From Bradyrhizobium sp. WBOS07 (GTDB taxonomy: Bacteria; Pseudomonadota; Alphaproteobacteria; Rhizobiales; Xanthobacteraceae), in contig NZ_CP029008.1 of assembly GCF_024585165.1 (NCBI RefSeq), forward strand, positions 2,046,001 to 2,110,000: a stretch of 64,000 bases of DNA. Reading direction: 5' to 3'. A program made the position numbers and the translations under genes. Below are positions 47,860 to 54,889 of the stretch, piece by piece. Positions within the stretch are counted from its first letter, which is position 1; each line of letters opens with the position of its first letter. The notes below the pieces were generated by a model. That model saw only the letters and a program-made list of their open reading frames with translations. It searched no databases and was not told the DNA's origin.

Positions 47860-48195
47860 GCCCGCCTGTGGATTGTTGCGCAGCAAGTGGCTATGCGGAC
47901 GCCCCAATTCCCAGCACCCGCCCTGTGGATATGCTGCGGATAGGTTGTTGAAGGGCGGTCAGTTGCGGCATCGCCGCTGCACCGAGCAACACCTATCGTC
48001 GCGCACGAACTGGGAAGCTCAAATCGCGTCGCCCTGGCATGCGACCAGTTTTTGTGCAGCGCCTTGCCCAAACCGCGGGCCTGCTCGATCCAATTTTTTG
48101 TACGCCCGCGGACAAGCTTTTCGAGCGGGATCCCACCTAGCTTCGCGTTCGACCTGGAACATGGCAGGCGCCATGACAACGCGAAGGAGCTGGAG
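47860..48195. other. Intergenic region before the amide-uptake locus
   Basis: 336 bases. No credible gene on either strand. The end contains the strong ribosome-binding site (GAAGGAGC) of the solute-binding protein. Promoter or operator sites of the following operon should lie here, but I see no clear dyad. Confidence 0.45.
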
Positions 48196-49116
48196 ATGGA
48201 GAGACGGGTTTTGCCGCAGGCGCGGCGGGGATTGGTGCGCGCATCATTGCCACCGCGCAAGCTCATGCTCGGCGCCGCCGCAGCTTTTGGACTCCTTGTT
48301 GCAGCACCGCTGAGCGCGCAGGCCGCAGCGCCCGCCGCCTGCGCCGCGCTCCAGGAAAAATATCCGGACTGGAAGGGCAAGACGCTGGTCAACGCCATCA
48401 ATCCGCATACGCCGGGCTATGAGACCATCGATACCAAGGATCCCAGCAAGTATATCGGCTTCGACATCGATCTCGGCGAAGCCATCGGCGAATGCCTCGG
48501 TTTCAAGCTGACCTACAAGGCGGTGACGTTCGCGGCGCTCCTGACCACGCTCGCCGCGGGGCAAGCCGACATCGTGATCTCCGACATCTACGCCACCAAG
48601 GAGCGTGCCAAGGCCGCCGACTTCATCACCTACTCGAAGGTGTTCGACGGCGTCCTCGTCGCCAAGGGCAATCCGAAGGGCATCAACGGCATCAACTTGT
48701 CGCTGTGTGGCGCCGCTGCGGCCGAAAACACCGGCTATGTCGAGGTGCCCTTGATCCAGGCGCTGATCCCGGAATGCAAGAAGGCCGGCAAGCCCGAGCC
48801 GACCATCCAGCTCTACGACAACAACGCCAACTGCATCCAGGCGATCCTCGCCGGCCGCGCCGACACCTACATCAACGACGTCAACACCGTCGACAGTGCC
48901 GTCAAGGCCTATCCGGACAAGCTGGAGAAGGCGATCGCCGTGACGATCCCGTATTCCGTCGGCATCGCCGTGCCCAAGAACAAGCCGAAATTCCGCGACG
49001 CCGTGCTCGCCGCGTTGATCGAAGTGCAGAAGGCCGGAACCCATATGGAGCTTCTGAAGAAGCACGGGCTCGATGTGAACAATTTCATGGAGCCGGAAAT
49101 TCTCACGGCCGACTGA
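48196..49116 (+). CDS. ABC transporter solute-binding protein (amino-acid type)
   Basis: 306 residues. Long signal peptide (about 1-42; hydrophobic core LMLGAAAAFGLLVAAPLSAQ). Type II periplasmic binding protein: KYIGFDIDLGEAIGECLGFK, TTLAAGQADIVISDIYATKE, and CIQAILAGRADTYINDVNTV. The HisJ/ArtJ-like fold is clear, but the amino-acid-binding arginine motif of classical members is not evident, so another small polar ligand such as an amide is possible. The stop overlaps the transporter fusion gene by one base (TGATG). First gene of the amide locus. Confidence 0.88.
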   Translation: MERRVLPQARRGLVRASLPPRKLMLGAAAAFGLLVAAPLSAQAAAPAACAALQEKYPDWKGKTLVNAINPHTPGYETIDTKDPSKYIGFDIDLGEAIGECLGFKLTYKAVTFAALLTTLAAGQADIVISDIYATKERAKAADFITYSKVFDGVLVAKGNPKGINGINLSLCGAAAAENTGYVEVPLIQALIPECKKAGKPEPTIQLYDNNANCIQAILAGRADTYINDVNTVDSAVKAYPDKLEKAIAVTIPYSVGIAVPKNKPKFRDAVLAALIEVQKAGTHMELLKKHGLDVNNFMEPEILTAD

Positions 49117-50738
49117 TGTCGCTGTTCCTCCACTACCTGAGCATGCCGTATCTGCTCGCGGGCATCGAGCTCACCCTCGAGGTGACTGCCCTCGGGCTCG
49201 GCGGTGGATTGATCCTCGGATTGATCCTCGCCGGCATGCAGCTCTCCCGCTTCTGGCTCCTGGCGGCGATCGCCAGGGCCTACACCGTGATCTTCCGCGG
49301 CACCCCGCTGATCCTGCAGATGGTGTTCGCCTACGACGCGTTGCCGCATATCGGCATCAAGCTGCCGGCGGTGCTGGCGGCCGGACTCGCACTGGCCTGC
49401 AACGAAGCGCCGTTCATCGCGGAGATGCTGCGCGCCGGCGTGCTCGGCGTCGACCGCGGACAACTGACGGCCGGACAGGCGCTGGGCATGACGCCGTCGG
49501 TGCTGATGCGCAGGATCATCGCGCCGCAGGCCATCCGCACCATGATCCCGGCCTTCGGCAACGAGGCGGTGAGTGCGCTGAAGAATTCCTCGCTCGCCTC
49601 CGTCGTCGCGGTGCAGGAGCTGACCTTGCGCTCGACGCAGCTGGCGTCCTCGACCTTCGATTTCTTCTCGATCTTTTTCGCCTCGGGTCTGCTCTATCTC
49701 GTTCTAACCACGGCCATCAGCGTCATCCAGCTCTTCGTCGAATGGTGGCTCGATCTCGACCGCACCACGCGCCGCGAGCGTAGGCTCGCCGATTATCTGC
49801 CCTGGCGCCGCGTCGATCTGGCTGCCAAGCTCGAACTGGCCGATGCGACCGCCGCCGATCCCGAGCCCGCGCCGGCAGAGCTCGCGGTCACGCCGCCGCT
49901 GGCCCTGACCCGCGAGGAGCGGGCCCGCCGCGCCGCGACGATCGCGCGCAACAATATCGCGGTCGAAGTGAAGGACCTGACCAAGAGCTACGGGTCACAG
50001 ACGGTGCTCGATGGCCTCGACCTCACGGTGCGCATCGGCGAGGTGGTCGCGCTGCTCGGCCCGAGCGGCTCCGGAAAGAGCACGCTGCTTCGCTGCATCA
50101 ATCACCTCGAAAACTGGGATGCCGGCACCGTGCGCGTCGGCGGCCGGCGCCTCGGCTTCGGCGAGAACGGCAAGCCGTTGTCGCCGCGGGCGATCGCCAA
50201 TGAGCGCGCCAGTGTCGGCGTCGGCATGGTGTTCCAGCAGTTCAATCTGTTCGCGCATCTTTCGGCCAAGGAGAACATCGCCGGCCCCTTGCGCTGGGTT
50301 CATGGCATGACCCGCATCGATGCCGATCGCCGCGCCGCCGAGCTGCTCGATCGTGTCGGGCTTTCGCATCGCGCCCATGCGCTGCCGCGGCATCTTTCCG
50401 GCGGCCAGCAGCAGCGCGTTGCCATTGCCCGTGCGCTGGCGCCGAACCCGAGCGTGCTGCTGCTGGACGAGCCGACCTCGGCACTCGATCCGGAGCTGGT
50501 CAACGAGGTGCTGGAGGTGATCCGGCGCCTGGCCATCGACGACGGCCTCACCATGATCATCTCGACGCACCAGATCCGCTTCGCAGACGAGGTCGCCGAT
50601 CGCGTCGCCTTCCTGAGCGGCGGCGCGATCATCGAGGAGGGGCCCGCGCACGATGTGCTCACCAATCCCCACCATCCGCTGACGGCACGATTCCTCAGCG
50701 TGATGGAAGCCGACAAGACCCCGGAGACGGTGCGATGA
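49116..50738 (+). CDS. Fused ABC transporter permease-ATPase (amino-acid type)
   Basis: 540 residues joining two proteins that are normally separate. Residues 1-220 are a HisM/GlnP-type permease with about five helices (RAYTVIFRGTPLILQMVFAY; EAA loop GQALGMTPSVLMRRIIAPQA). A Pro/Ala/Glu-rich linker follows (about 235-285). Residues 285-540 are a complete ABC ATPase: Walker [10 protein letters not shown] (315-323), signature [10 protein letters not shown] (427-436), Walker [16 protein letters not shown] and switch His in ISTHQIRFADEVA. No stop or frameshift separates the parts, so permease and ATPase are made 1:1 in one chain. Next gene starts 47 bases later. Confidence 0.93.
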   Translation: MSLFLHYLSMPYLLAGIELTLEVTALGLGGGLILGLILAGMQLSRFWLLAAIARAYTVIFRGTPLILQMVFAYDALPHIGIKLPAVLAAGLALACNEAPFIAEMLRAGVLGVDRGQLTAGQALGMTPSVLMRRIIAPQAIRTMIPAFGNEAVSALKNSSLASVVAVQELTLRSTQLASSTFDFFSIFFASGLLYLVLTTAISVIQLFVEWWLDLDRTTRRERRLADYLPWRRVDLAAKLELADATAADPEPAPAELAVTPPLALTREERARRAATIARNNIAVEVKDLTKSYGSQTVLDGLDLTVRIGEVVALLGPSGSGKSTLLRCINHLENWDAGTVRVGGRRLGFGENGKPLSPRAIANERASVGVGMVFQQFNLFAHLSAKENIAGPLRWVHGMTRIDADRRAAELLDRVGLSHRAHALPRHLSGGQQQRVAIARALAPNPSVLLLDEPTSALDPELVNEVLEVIRRLAIDDGLTMIISTHQIRFADEVADRVAFLSGGAIIEEGPAHDVLTNPHHPLTARFLSVMEADKTPETVR

Positions 50739-50785: not shown

Positions 50786-52027
50786 ATGAAGCATGTCACG
50801 TTGTCGGTTTCGCCGAAGACCGTCCACTGGGGTTATTTTTCCAAGACAGTGGCGCCGGCCCTGACGCTGCGCTCCGGAGATCGCGCCACGATCGAGACGC
50901 TGACCCATCACGCCAATGACGATTACGAGCGAATGATCCAGGGCGATCCGGGCGCCGAGAGCGTGTTCCAGTGGACGCGCGAGTACAAGGCCGTCGCGCG
51001 CCGCGGCTCAGGTCCGACGGAAGGCCCGTTCATCCGCGGTGCGGGCGAGGGAATCGGCGTGCATCTGCTCACCGGTCCGGTCGCGATCGAAGGTGCCGAG
51101 CCCGGCGACATTCTGGAGGTACGCATCCTCGATGTCCGGCCGCGGCCGAGTTGCAGCGCGTGCCATGCCGGCCGCTGCTTCGGCTCCAACGTCGCTGCGA
51201 ACTGGGGCTTTCACTATCACGACCTGATCGAGGAGCCGAAGCCGCGCGAGGTCATCACCATCTTCGAACTCGATACCGCGGGCGAGCCCTACGCGAAGGC
51301 GCTCTACAACTATGTCTGGACGCCGCAGACTGATCCCGACGGCATCGTGCATCCGACCATCGACTATCCCGGCGTCCGCGTCGATCACGCCACCATCAGG
51401 AAGCGCGAGAACATTCTGTCCAGCGTCAAGGTGCCGGCGCGGCTGCATTTCGGCACGATGGGCCTTGCGCCGTCGGAAGCCGATTTCGTCAGCTCGATTC
51501 CGCCCGGCTATACCGGCGGCAACATCGACGACTGGCGCATCGGCAAGGGCGCGCGGATGTTCTATCCGGTCGCCGTCCCCGGCGCCTATTTCTCGGTCGG
51601 CGATCCTCACGCTGCGCAAGGTGACAGCGAGCTCGGCGGCACCGCGATCGAGACCTCGCTGACCGGCGATTTCGAATTTATCCTGCATAAGAAGGCCGAC
51701 CTTGCCGGCACCAGCCTCGAAGGCCTCGACCACCCGATGCTCGAGACCGACCAGGCCTGGTCCTTCTACGGCTTCACCTATCCGAACTATCTCGCCACGC
51801 TCGGCGCCGATGCACAAACCGAGATTGCCAATCACTCCAGCCTCGACCGTGCGATGCGCGACGCGTTCCGAAAACTCCGCCGTTTCCTGATGACGGTGCA
51901 CCGTCTCAGCGAGGACGAGGCGATCTCGCTGCTGTCGGTCGCGGCGGATTTCGGCGTCACCCAGGTGGTCGACGCCAATTGGGGCGTCCATGGCACGATC
52001 CGCAAGAACGTCTTCCGATGCGACTAA
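50786..52027 (+). CDS. Acetamidase/formamidase family amidase
   Basis: 413 residues, one FmdA_AmdA domain. Motifs: VHWGYFSKTVAP and SGDRATIETLTHHANDD near the N-terminus, the conserved GDPHAAQGDSELGGTAIE (about residues 272-289), which holds metal-binding and active-site residues, and GVTQVVDANWGVHGTI near the end. The reaction is hydrolysis of formamide or a short aliphatic amide to ammonia and the acid. An unusual Cys cluster RPSCSACHAGRC lies near residue 130. The AraC-fused paralog follows, so two amidases are made here. Confidence 0.9.
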   Translation: MKHVTLSVSPKTVHWGYFSKTVAPALTLRSGDRATIETLTHHANDDYERMIQGDPGAESVFQWTREYKAVARRGSGPTEGPFIRGAGEGIGVHLLTGPVAIEGAEPGDILEVRILDVRPRPSCSACHAGRCFGSNVAANWGFHYHDLIEEPKPREVITIFELDTAGEPYAKALYNYVWTPQTDPDGIVHPTIDYPGVRVDHATIRKRENILSSVKVPARLHFGTMGLAPSEADFVSSIPPGYTGGNIDDWRIGKGARMFYPVAVPGAYFSVGDPHAAQGDSELGGTAIETSLTGDFEFILHKKADLAGTSLEGLDHPMLETDQAWSFYGFTYPNYLATLGADAQTEIANHSSLDRAMRDAFRKLRRFLMTVHRLSEDEAISLLSVAADFGVTQVVDANWGVHGTIRKNVFRCD

Positions 52028-52161: not shown

Positions 52162-54492
52162 ATGAGCTTCCGTCCGTTCACGAGCGAGTCCTACGCGCGA
52201 GACGACCGTCCGGAAGCCTGGCGGGACGTGCTGGCTGCTGTCGGCCTGAAGCCTTCGGGTGGCCACAGCAGCTTCGACGGACACGCAAGTGCGTCGCACC
52301 GGCACGCTGCAGGCGTCGCGCTGACACGCGTGGCCGCGGGCACGCAGAGCGTCGGACCGCTGCCGCGCGCAAACGAGGACCTTCCCATCGCACTCATGCC
52401 GGTGGAGGACGGCATGGTGCTGGAATGCGCCGGCGGCCACCGCATCGTCCCCGTCGGGCACCTCGTGCTGCTGCCGCGAAGCGGCGGCTGGCGGATCGTG
52501 TTCCAGCGCGACATGCGGGCGATCGTGCTCTCGGTGACGTCGGAGGCTTTGCATGGGCGCCTGTCGGGCAGGCCCCGGTTCGGCGAGCCCCGGGTCGTTC
52601 CGCCGAGCGGCTTTGCCGACCTGTTCTCGCGCATGCTGGATGCAACCGCGCGCACGCTCGACACGCTGAGCGACACCGAATGGAATCTGGTCGCGCGTTC
52701 GCTGGTGGACCTGCTGCTGACGCTCGCGCATCAGCAGGCATCCTCGGCCGCAGATGCGGGATCGAGCGCGACGCAATCCGCGCTTCTGCACAGGATCTGC
52801 CAGACGATCGAGCATCGCCTCGACGATCCCGGTCTCGGGCCCGCGCGTGTCGCCGAGGCCGAGGGGATATCCGAGCGCTATTTGCAGAAGCTGTTCGAGA
52901 CGGTCGGGGACAATTTCACCCATTACGTTCGCGAACGCCGGCTTCAGCGTGCCTGGGCCGACCTTTCCAATCCGGCCGAGGCGCACCGGTCGATCTCGGA
53001 GATCGCCTACGCCTATGGCTTCGGCGATTCCGCGCATTTCAGCCGAGCCTTCCGCCACCGCTTCGGCCTGCCGCCGCGCGAGTTTCGCCAGCAGGAGGCG
53101 GAGCGCGCGACGGCGCATCACGGCGTTCCAGGCCAGCGCGGCTGGCCCCAGGAGGCGCTGGCACAGCTTCGCGCGCATCAGAGCGTTGAGGCGCGCAGCA
53201 GCGTCGCCTGCGCCGGTGCCGAGAAACCGGCCGCGTCGGAGCGCCGGCATCACCATCTTCCCGTCGAAGCCAGCCGCGTCCATTGGGGTTATTTCAGCCG
53301 CTCTCTACCGCCGCAGATCGAGATCGCCTCGGGCGACACCATCACCATCGAGACGCTGACGCAGCACGCCTCCGACGATCCCGAGTTGATGATCGAGGGC
53401 GATGCCGCCGCCGAAAGCGTGTTCGGCTGGACGCGGCAGCGGAAGAACGTCGACCGCCGCGGGGCAGGGCCGATGGACGCCAGCGTGTTCGGCCGTGGTG
53501 CAGGCGAGGGATTTGGCGTGCACATCTGCACCGGTCCGGTGGCTGTGAAGGACGCTCAACCCGGCGACGTGCTCGAGGTGCGCATCCTCGACATCGTGCC
53601 GCGGGCGAGCCGTCATCCCGATCATGCGGGCCGCGTGTTCGGTTCCTCGGTCGCGGCGTGGTGGGGCTATCATTACAACGAGTTTCTCGGCGGTCTTAAG
53701 CCACGCGAAGCCGTCACCATCTACGAGATATTCGACAACGCCGACGAGGCCCATGCCCGCGCCCTCTATTCCTACCGATGGGAGCCGCAGACCGATCCTT
53801 TCGGCGTCGTTCACACGACCTACGACTATCCCGGCGTTCCCGTCGCATCCGCCACGATCAAGCGTCGCCATGCCGTGCTCGACGGCATCAAGATTCCCCT
53901 GCGTCCCCATTTCGGCGTGATCGCGGTGGCACCGCGCGAGGTCGATTTCGTCGATTCCGTGCCGCCATCCTATTTCGGCGGCAATCTGGACAATTGGCGG
54001 CTGGGGAAGGGGGCAACCGTCTATCTGCCGGTTTCCGTGCCCGGCGCGCTTCTGTCGGTCGGCGATCCCCACGCCGCCCAGGGCGATGGCGAGCTCAGCG
54101 GCACGGCGATCGAATGCTCGATGACCGGCACCTTCGAGGTGATCCTGCACAAGAAGGCGGATCTTGCCGGCCGGCCTTTCGCCGATCTCTCTTATCCCCT
54201 GATCGAGACCGCCACCGATTGGGTGCTGACCGGCTTCAGTCATCCGAACTACCTCGCGGAGTTCGGCGCCCAGGGACAAAGCGAGGTCTACGCCAAGTCT
54301 TCGCTCGATCTCGCCATGAAGGATGCGTTTCGCAAGATGCGGCGCTTCCTGATGAACGTCAAAGGCCTCAGCGAGGACGAGGCCATCGCGCTGATGTCGG
54401 CCGCCGTCGATTTCGGCGTGACGCAGGTGGTCGACGGCAATTGGGGCGTGCACGCCATCCTCAGCAAGCGCCTGTTTCAAGACGCATCCTAA
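52162..54492 (+). CDS. AraC-type regulator fused to an acetamidase/formamidase
   Basis: 776 residues from ATG at 52162; GTG 52063 would add 33 residues of doubtful value. Residues 1-200 form an AraC ligand-binding-like half (SFRPFTSESYARDDRPEAWR opens it). Residues 212-311 are the AraC DNA-binding domain: two helix-turn-helix motifs, VAEAEGISERYLQKLFETVG and ISEIAYAYGFGDSAHFSRAF, then the FRHRFGLPPREFR end. A 50-residue linker leads to a full FmdA_AmdA domain (about 366-776): VHWGYFSRSLPP (His374), GDPHAAQGDGELSGTAIE (634-651), GVTQVVDGNWGVHAIL. The frame is unbroken. Both parts keep their key residues, so one protein probably regulates and hydrolyses. It lies 34 bp after the free amidase reading frame ends. 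Confidence 0.88.
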   Translation: MSFRPFTSESYARDDRPEAWRDVLAAVGLKPSGGHSSFDGHASASHRHAAGVALTRVAAGTQSVGPLPRANEDLPIALMPVEDGMVLECAGGHRIVPVGHLVLLPRSGGWRIVFQRDMRAIVLSVTSEALHGRLSGRPRFGEPRVVPPSGFADLFSRMLDATARTLDTLSDTEWNLVARSLVDLLLTLAHQQASSAADAGSSATQSALLHRICQTIEHRLDDPGLGPARVAEAEGISERYLQKLFETVGDNFTHYVRERRLQRAWADLSNPAEAHRSISEIAYAYGFGDSAHFSRAFRHRFGLPPREFRQQEAERATAHHGVPGQRGWPQEALAQLRAHQSVEARSSVACAGAEKPAASERRHHHLPVEASRVHWGYFSRSLPPQIEIASGDTITIETLTQHASDDPELMIEGDAAAESVFGWTRQRKNVDRRGAGPMDASVFGRGAGEGFGVHICTGPVAVKDAQPGDVLEVRILDIVPRASRHPDHAGRVFGSSVAAWWGYHYNEFLGGLKPREAVTIYEIFDNADEAHARALYSYRWEPQTDPFGVVHTTYDYPGVPVASATIKRRHAVLDGIKIPLRPHFGVIAVAPREVDFVDSVPPSYFGGNLDNWRLGKGATVYLPVSVPGALLSVGDPHAAQGDGELSGTAIECSMTGTFEVILHKKADLAGRPFADLSYPLIETATDWVLTGFSHPNYLAEFGAQGQSEVYAKSSLDLAMKDAFRKMRRFLMNVKGLSEDEAIALMSAAVDFGVTQVVDGNWGVHAILSKRLFQDAS

Positions 54493-54505: not shown

Positions 54506-54889
54506 GTGAAATTCCACATGATCAGCGGCGGACCGAAGCCGGTCGCGCCTTTCAGCCATGCGGTGGAAACCGATGGCTTCGTCTTCGTCACGGGCCAGAT
54601 GCCGGACACGCCGCAGGCGCCGGGCGTGCTGCCCGAGGGCATCGTCGCGCAGACCCGCGCGGTGATGGCGAATTTGAAGATCGTCTTGGCCGGTCTCGAT
54701 CTCGGCCTCGAGCATGTCGTGATGACGCGAGTTTATCTCACGCGCTTCCGGGACGACTACACGGCCATGAACGAGACCTACCGCACGTTCTTTCCGCCGG
54801 ACCGGCTCCCCGCGCGCACCTGTGTCGGGGTCACCGGGCTCGCCTATGACGCGTTGATCGAGATTGATCTGGTGTGCCGTCGGCCGTGA
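54506..54889 (+). CDS. RidA family protein
   Basis: 127 residues from GTG at 54506; AAGGA lies 7 bases upstream. YjgF/RidA fold: FSHAVETDGFVFVTGQMPDT, VMANLKIVLAGLDLGLEHVV and the catalytic-loop arginine in RLPARTCVGVTGLAYDALIE. RidA proteins hydrolyse reactive enamines/imines to keto acids and ammonia. Placed 13 bases after the AraC-amidase gene, so it is part of the same locus, possibly clearing a reactive nitrogen intermediate. Confidence 0.88.
   Translation: MKFHMISGGPKPVAPFSHAVETDGFVFVTGQMPDTPQAPGVLPEGIVAQTRAVMANLKIVLAGLDLGLEHVVMTRVYLTRFRDDYTAMNETYRTFFPPDRLPARTCVGVTGLAYDALIEIDLVCRRP

What the first reader, a model, noticed from the sequence alone, without database searches (positions are those of the whole stretch)
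52162..54492. A transcription factor and an amidase in one chain: AraC-acetamidase fusion
Seen: one unbroken frame holds a full AraC-type DNA-binding region (residues 212-311) and a full acetamidase/formamidase domain (about 366-776) with the conserved GDPHAAQGDGELSGTAIE motif intact. Known: AraC proteins normally sense ligands with a small cupin-like domain and are separate from the enzymes they control. Inferred: the protein may act as a regulator that destroys its own inducer, or whose DNA binding is set by occupancy of the enzyme site, directly coupling amide level to expression of the uptake/hydrolysis locus.
Basis: partly seen in the sequence, partly recalled or inferred. Interest (0 to 1): 0.82.

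Follow-up and report, generated by a model that had tools for sequence, protein, structure and literature searches.

The report
Gene switch fused to an amidase
A bacterial gene-control protein has been welded to an amide-cutting enzyme, and it travels with a matching DNA site in front of amide uptake and breakdown genes, which suggests that an enzyme has become part of the switch for its own pathway.

Summary
Window 52162-54492 is one unbroken 776-codon frame: an AraC regulator followed by an acetamidase/formamidase (FmdA_AmdA) domain. It is no artefact: the frame is open in 78 of 80 related loci, and the fused amidases form one clade.

Two corrections. The regulator half keeps its own cupin-type domain besides the HTH. 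The gene is fourth in an operon of binding protein, permease-ATPase, unfused amidase, fusion, RidA.

New: a candidate operator at 48090-48117 (CAA repeated 22 bp apart). A matrix trained only on this operon type reaches 15 bits in 13 of 22 loci with distant fusions (mean 0.285 for permuted matrices; 9 of the 13 are one genus). A stricter pattern hits 296 genomes 20 times, always 49-66 bp before a fusion.

The fused amidase keeps the family's invariant polar residues but lost a histidine (401, Q in 91 of 92) and a tyrosine (622, L in 92 of 92) that its nearest unfused relatives keep. All 108 distinct linkers carry RGxP.

Best reading: an enzyme-derived sensor, GabR/MocR-like in design, built from other parts. 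Binding, activity and effector are untested.

The parts
52162..54492 (+). AraC-amidase fusion protein, 776 aa
   Evidence: open frame, Pfam, conserved in 78 of 80 loci without a stop
52222..52722 (+). AraC-type cupin sensor/dimerisation domain, residues 21-187
   Evidence: PF14525 44.7 bits, cut-off 27; Foldseek matches to AraC arm and full-length AraC proteins
52852..53094 (+). AraC-type double helix-turn-helix, residues 231-311
   Evidence: PF12833 79.1 bits, cut-off 33.6
53137..53148 (+). RGWP motif (residues 326-329) in the otherwise variable linker
   Evidence: RGxP in 108 of 108 distinct linkers
53242..54480 (+). amidase domain (FmdA_AmdA, 3b9t type), residues 361-773
48090..48117 (+). 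candidate operator CCAATTTTTTGTACGCCCGCGGACAAGC, CAA direct repeat 22 bp apart
   Evidence: conserved in 75 type-I promoters and found near distant fusions
48045..48072 (+). second, weaker operator-like stretch
   Evidence: by eye in the alignment; not among the six best matrix sites
48196..49116 (+). ABC importer binding protein (SBP_bac_3)
49116..50738 (+). ABC importer permease and ATPase in one chain
50786..52027 (+). unfused amidase paralogue, 413 aa
   Evidence: PF03069 107 bits; about 60% identical to the fused domain
54506..54889 (+). RidA-family protein (GTG start)
   Evidence: PF01042 97 bits

Best explanation
The protein is an AraC-family transcription activator with an amidase-derived effector domain. 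Its HTH binds a 22-bp-spaced direct repeat next to the -35 position of the importer-amidase operon; as the fusion is the fourth gene of that operon, it also drives its own synthesis. The amide that the importer brings in is bound, and perhaps slowly cleaved, by the C-terminal amidase domain; occupancy of that domain, perhaps together with the cupin, sets whether the AraC half activates. Shown: the fusion, its conservation and one-clade origin, the operon, a conserved DNA site that travels with fusions, and two replaced residues in an otherwise intact amidase core. Inferred: that the protein binds this site, that it activates, that the amidase domain is the sensor, and what the effector is.
For: 1) A matrix from 75 promoters of this operon type reaches 15 bits or more in 13 of 22 loci with distant fusions; 200 column-permuted matrices gave 0.285 on average, 4 at most. 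Two loci scanned later, L154 (24.5 bits) and L155 (26.3 bits), have it before the binding-protein gene; in L154 the fusion lies at the far end of the operon, so the site follows the target operon. 2) A stricter pattern hits 296 genomes 20 times, 20 of 20 lying 49-66 bp before the extrapolated start of a fusion, same orientation; reversed control 0. A degenerate form hits the own 6.73-Mb genome once, at window 48091. 3) Fusions stand beside an ABC operon, a secreted-type amidase (L117, L118, L132, L144) or a short amidase (L115, L133, L134, L135). 4) Fused copies carry Q401 (91 of 92) and L622 (92 of 92) where nearest unfused relatives have H and Y, at dN/dS 0.06-0.16 for the amidase part against 0.12-0.52 for the cupin. 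5) In G351 an unfused AraC of this kind directly follows an unfused amidase.
Against: No binding, expression or enzyme data. A cupin sensor domain is present, so the amidase need not be the sensor. Distances of 401 and 622 to the active site could not be measured, and a distant free amidase of the own genome (L085) also has L at 622 and G at 401. The matrix misses 8 of 22 loci (L116, L118, L119, L133, L134, L135, L140, L150) and gives L114 only 11.9 bits; 9 of the 13 strong hits are one genus, and by lineage 5 of 14 reach 15 bits. The pattern was written after the sites had been seen. In the nine loci of that genus no second amidase matched in the stretches fetched, which weakens the division into sensor and bulk enzyme there.
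Confidence: 0.52

Rival explanations
1. Convenience fusion: the cupin domain senses, the AraC half regulates, and the amidase part is an ordinary working enzyme joined so that both are made together.
For: Complete AraC_binding_2 domain; invariant polar residues of the amidase kept in at least 89 of 92; low dN/dS as in the unfused partner; no second amidase matched in nine loci of one genus.
Against: In the window's operon a separate amidase is already made from the same transcript; H401 and Y622 are replaced in nearly every fused copy; the cupin is the faster-evolving half.
Confidence: 0.25
2. Docking model: the fused amidase domain assembles with the unfused amidase (or with itself) and so reports enzyme amount or occupancy to the promoter.
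For: An unfused amidase lies next to the fusion in 79 of 80 loci of this operon type and near it in most other arrangements read; the two are about 60% identical.
Against: No interface evidence; nine loci of one genus have no second amidase in the stretch fetched; in L064 the partner is of a different lineage than the fusion beside it.
Confidence: 0.12
3. The DNA site is bound by another regulator or is a promoter element, and the AraC half acts elsewhere or has decayed.
For: Binding untested; 8 of 22 loci lack a clear site.
Against: HTH dN/dS 0.03-0.27; site found 20 of 20 times before a fusion and nowhere else in 296 genomes; secreted-type amidase loci without a fusion (L095, L097, L120) have no site above 8.4 bits.
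Confidence: 0.08

Closest known systems
GabR/MocR-type regulators (GntR HTH plus aminotransferase-like domain)
   Same: A transcription factor whose effector domain derives from a metabolic enzyme (recalled; PMC5924519 seen only as a listing).
   Different: Other HTH family and other enzyme fold; here a cupin sensor domain is kept as well.
FeaR-like AraC/XylS activators
   Same: Cupin plus HTH; FeaR is the best NCBIfam match of the N-terminal part (118 bits, cut-off 199).
   Different: Ordinary members end after the HTH (recalled); here an RGxP linker and a whole amidase domain follow.
3b9t, predicted acetamidase/formamidase of Methylobacillus flagellatus
   Same: 60-62% identical over the C-terminal domain.
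   Different: Free-standing and named as a Tat-signal protein; the fused copies differ at 401 and 622 from the unfused groups compared.
PutA and other trigger enzymes
   Same: DNA binding and an enzyme of the regulated pathway in one chain (recalled; listing only).
   Different: PutA is a repressor with another DNA-binding fold (recalled); here a complete AraC protein precedes a hydrolase.
Ada and DJ-1/PfpI-type AraC proteins (FtrA, GlxA)
   Same: AraC HTH joined to an enzyme-like domain (recalled; FtrA is a weak match).
   Different: There the enzyme-like domain stands before the HTH in place of the cupin (recalled); here cupin, HTH and a C-terminal amidase are all present.

Membership tests
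AraC/XylS regulators | double helix-turn-helix domain (PF12833) | tested here: met
   79.1 bits, cut-off 33.6
AraC/XylS regulators | cupin-like sensor/dimerisation domain | tested here: met
   PF14525 44.7 bits, cut-off 27; Foldseek matches to CuxR, Rns, ToxT and AraC arm
AraC/XylS regulators | binding to a promoter-proximal direct repeat | tested here: inconclusive
   conserved 22-bp-spaced site by comparison; binding itself not tested
FmdA_AmdA amidases (PF03069) | family profile and fold | tested here: met
   101.3 bits, cut-off 27; 3b9t top match
FmdA_AmdA amidases (PF03069) | invariant residues | tested here: met
   48 columns by my thresholds; one (588) is consistently changed, G to A in 90 of 92; polar ones kept in at least 89 of 92
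FmdA_AmdA amidases (PF03069) | amide hydrolysis | not testable with these tools
   no assay possible
FeaR equivalog NF007243 | score over curated cut-off | tested here: not met
   118.4 against 199 bits
FormamaseFmdA equivalog NF045496 | score over curated cut-off | tested here: not met
   60.8 against 500 bits
GabR/MocR regulators | GntR-type HTH plus aminotransferase-like domain | tested here: not met
   neither is among the Pfam matches; analogy of design only

The most novel reading that the evidence does not exclude
An amidase was captured once by an AraC activator and turned into its allosteric sensor: two residues kept in the free relatives were swapped, an RGxP (AT-hook-like) linker was added, and the one-chain switch, together with a 22-bp-spaced operator holding a T-tract, spread through alpha- and betaproteobacteria and was re-wired to ABC importers, TRAP transporters, secreted amidases and nitrile hydratase while largely keeping its DNA code.
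Probability: 0.42. Interest if true: 0.78.

Novelty: new variant of a known kind. Interest (0 to 1): 0.62.

Why it matters
Well-studied enzyme-derived transcription factors are few (GabR/MocR and PutA, recalled). This would be one in the AraC family with the cupin kept, one inferred fusion event, unfused relatives for comparison and a predicted operator that can be tested at once. It offers a direct system to ask how an enzyme pocket becomes a sensor, and a possible amide-responsive biosensor part. It also shows that public records name these proteins either 'acetamidase/formamidase family protein' or 'AraC family transcriptional regulator', each hiding one half.

Tried and rejected
Frameshift or assembly artefact: rejected, frame open in 78 of 80 loci. 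Enzyme domain in place of the AraC sensor: rejected, cupin present. Decayed amidase: rejected, dN/dS 0.06-0.16 over 11 relatives, several with saturated dS. Separate amidase from an internal start: not supported, 24 of 108 distinct linkers hold any Met; GTG/TTG starts were not examined. A longer frame from GTG 52063 exists; I kept ATG 52162, where relatives align and where the Rhizobium tumorigenes record starts its gene. The first own-genome pattern was written one base off and found nothing; the corrected one found one site. ORF picks sometimes chose antisense frames (two of those scanned gave no family). In L145 (G351, unfused pair) the best site, 13.6 bits, lies before a Rieske dioxygenase gene upstream of the amidase and AraC genes; 2.6% of permuted-matrix scans reach 13.5 in a locus, so it is suggestive only. 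In L134 and L135 a similar sequence (9.2 and 7.3 bits) lies far from the amidase genes with unclear target. In L118 a site-like stretch can be seen by eye but the matrix gives no hit there. Model: mean pLDDT 68.7, pTM 0.49, good for fold matches, not for domain arrangement. Ten paper searches showed no title or abstract start that describes an AraC-acetamidase fusion; this covers only an open-licence library. Of PMC12421990, PMC5882156 and PMC10781810 I saw found passages, of all others only the listing. PMC5882156 gives 106 companion domains for AraC/XylS and does not hold the word amidase in its main text.

Full report
WHAT IS THERE. Window 52162-54492 (+) reads as 776 codons without a stop. 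Pfam finds, over curated cut-offs, AraC_binding_2 at 21-187, HTH_18 at 231-311 and FmdA_AmdA at 453-758. Residues 361-773 align to the solved amidase 3b9t at E 4.1e-180. Foldseek on an AlphaFold2 model (36-row alignment; mean pLDDT 68.7, pTM 0.49) puts 3b9t first (60-62% identity) and also finds the AraC proteins CuxR, Rns and ToxT and the AraC arm/dimerisation domain.

THE OPERON. The gene is fourth of five: binding protein (ATG 48196), permease plus ATPase in one chain (49116-50738), unfused amidase (50786-52027), fusion, RidA (54506-54889). Of the 80 loci kept (112 relatives found), the unfused amidase is upstream in 79 (L049 is cut by its contig end); the binding protein is found in 75 (L037, L045, L049, L054, L065 begin too late in the contig); RidA follows in 77 (L037 is cut, L053 and L054 show none). 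Record titles name mostly Bradyrhizobium, with Rhodopseudomonas, Tardiphaga, Afipia, Rhizobium and MAGs.

SPREAD AND ORIGIN. In a sample of 398 genomes of the phylum, 17 have a strong match to the amidase domain, fused or not. Plasmid records add Caballeronia, Paraburkholderia, Variovorax, Novosphingobium, Sinorhizobium and Neorhizobium; 16 records cover at least 80% of the query in one place. In a quick tree of 50 thinned amidase domains (48 different) the 23 fused rows need one change and are one side of a branch (SH-aLRT 95), next to the secreted-type group (signal called by an RRxF motif); there is no bootstrap, and three long branches are flagged. A likely unfused counterpart exists: in G351 an amidase gene (41% to the fused domain) is directly followed by a separate AraC gene (35% to our N-terminal part, with cupin and HTH).

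ARRANGEMENTS. Besides the operon above: divergent from the same importer operon (Caballeronia) or convergent with it (Paraburkholderia FT54); divergent from a secreted-type amidase (L117, L118, L132, L144); downstream of a short amidase (L115, L133, L134, L135). In one genus it stands beside a DctP-type TRAP binding protein (L138, L142, divergent), with DctQ and DctM (L138) and gamma-glutamyltranspeptidase (L138, L139, L142) nearby. In Caballeronia zhejiangensis the importer operon continues into a GTP-binding protein, nitrile hydratase beta and alpha, an accessory protein and CbtB/CbtA, that is nitrile to amide to acid.

THE DNA SITE. Upstream of the binding-protein gene two stretches are conserved. 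The proximal one, 48090-48117, is CCAATTTTTTGTACGCCCGCGGACAAGC, with CAA repeated 22 bp on, close to the spacing of AraC half-sites (recalled). If the conserved TAGCTT at 48138 is the -10 box, the site reaches the -35 position (inference). A matrix from 75 such promoters (effective number about 8) was run over 22 loci with distant fusions that had not trained it: 13 reach 15 bits or more, near the fusion or its neighbour gene. Two hundred column-permuted matrices reached 15 bits in 0.285 loci on average, 4 at most; at 11.5 bits the figures are 14 of 22 against a mean of 1.35 and a maximum of 10. Nine of the 13 are one genus; by lineage it is 5 of 14 at 15 bits and 6 of 14 at 11.5. Misses: L116, L118, L119, L133, L134, L135, L140, L150. 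Loci scanned later: L154 24.5 and L155 26.3 bits, both before the binding-protein gene; L113 30.4 bits, a near relative of trained loci; L153 repeats L114's 11.9 bits. Three secreted-type amidase loci without a fusion (L095, L097, L120) reach at most 8.4 bits, two of them in only 4.2 kb. In the own genome a degenerate pattern hits once in 6.73 Mb, at window 48091. A stricter pattern hits 296 genomes 20 times; all 20 lie 49-66 bp upstream of the extrapolated start of a fusion of that one genus, same orientation, and 3 of the 23 fusions of that kind lack it (G407, G639, G658). That pattern was written after such sites had been seen; its value is specificity, not discovery. It does not match the window's own site.

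THE AMIDASE HALF. Across 92 fused, 83 unfused-partner, 12 secreted-type and 6 distant sequences, 48 columns are family-invariant by my thresholds. The fused copies change one of them consistently (588, G to A in 90 of 92) and keep the polar ones in at least 89 of 92. Position 401, H in the partner and secreted groups, is Q in 91 of 92; 622, mostly Y there, is L in 92 of 92. In the thinned set the exception at 401 is L116; secreted-type L106 has F at 622; the distant own amidase L085 has G at 401 and L at 622, so neither is a family-wide rule. dN/dS against the window for 11 relatives: amidase 0.06-0.16, HTH 0.03-0.27, cupin 0.12-0.52, linker 0.20-1.02; unfused partner 0.04-0.22. The fused enzyme part is kept nearly as strictly as its free partner, yet changed at marked places.

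THE LINKER. Variable except for RGxP soon after the HTH: 108 of 108 distinct linkers (RGWP 87, RGRP 16, RGLP 3, RGKP 2), against 1.9% of shuffled first-40-residue stretches. RGRP is the core of AT-hooks (recalled) and the operator holds a T-tract; that one grips the other is only a suggestion.

HOW IT MOST LIKELY WORKS. The importer brings in an amide or its precursor; the fused protein at 48090-48117 senses it through the amidase-derived domain, alone or with the cupin, and activates the operon that includes itself; the unfused amidase does most of the hydrolysis and so ends the signal. I hold the regulator-operator part at about 0.85 and the amidase-as-sensor part at about 0.5. The strongest rival is a convenience fusion in which the cupin senses and the amidase simply works; the nine loci of one genus in which no second amidase matched speak for it.

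WHAT IS KNOWN. Public records name these proteins 'acetamidase/formamidase family protein' or 'AraC family transcriptional regulator'. Ten searches of an open-licence library showed no title or abstract start that describes the fusion. Domain databases may list the architecture; I could not query them. By design it belongs with enzyme-derived regulators such as GabR/MocR; its parts differ; hence 'new variant of a known kind'.

Noticed in passing
L152 (Caballeronia zhejiangensis plasmid p2) 1423-9893: The importer-amidase operon beside the fusion continues into nitrile hydratase genes and a CbtA/CbtB pair, suggesting that the amide comes from a nitrile.
   Followed up: partly
own genome G000:C1:2143847-2144392 (-), about 34 kb beyond the window end: The window's own genome holds one nitrile hydratase alpha gene; the only operator-pattern hit of the genome is the one in the window.
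   Followed up: partly
   Followed up: partly
L064 6646 (Rhodopseudomonas palustris XCP): The unfused amidase is only 73% identical to ours and groups with Rhizobium copies, while the fused amidase part next to it is 84%: the partner seems to have been exchanged.
   Followed up: no
L027 (record titled Frankia sp. RB7): The operon is 86-96% identical to the window's, so the record is probably mislabelled or contaminated.
   Followed up: no
window 49116-50738: Permease and ATPase of the importer are one chain, so the operon holds two gene fusions.
   Followed up: no
window 48045-48072: A second, weaker operator-like stretch 45 bp upstream of the main one, perhaps for a second dimer.
   Followed up: no
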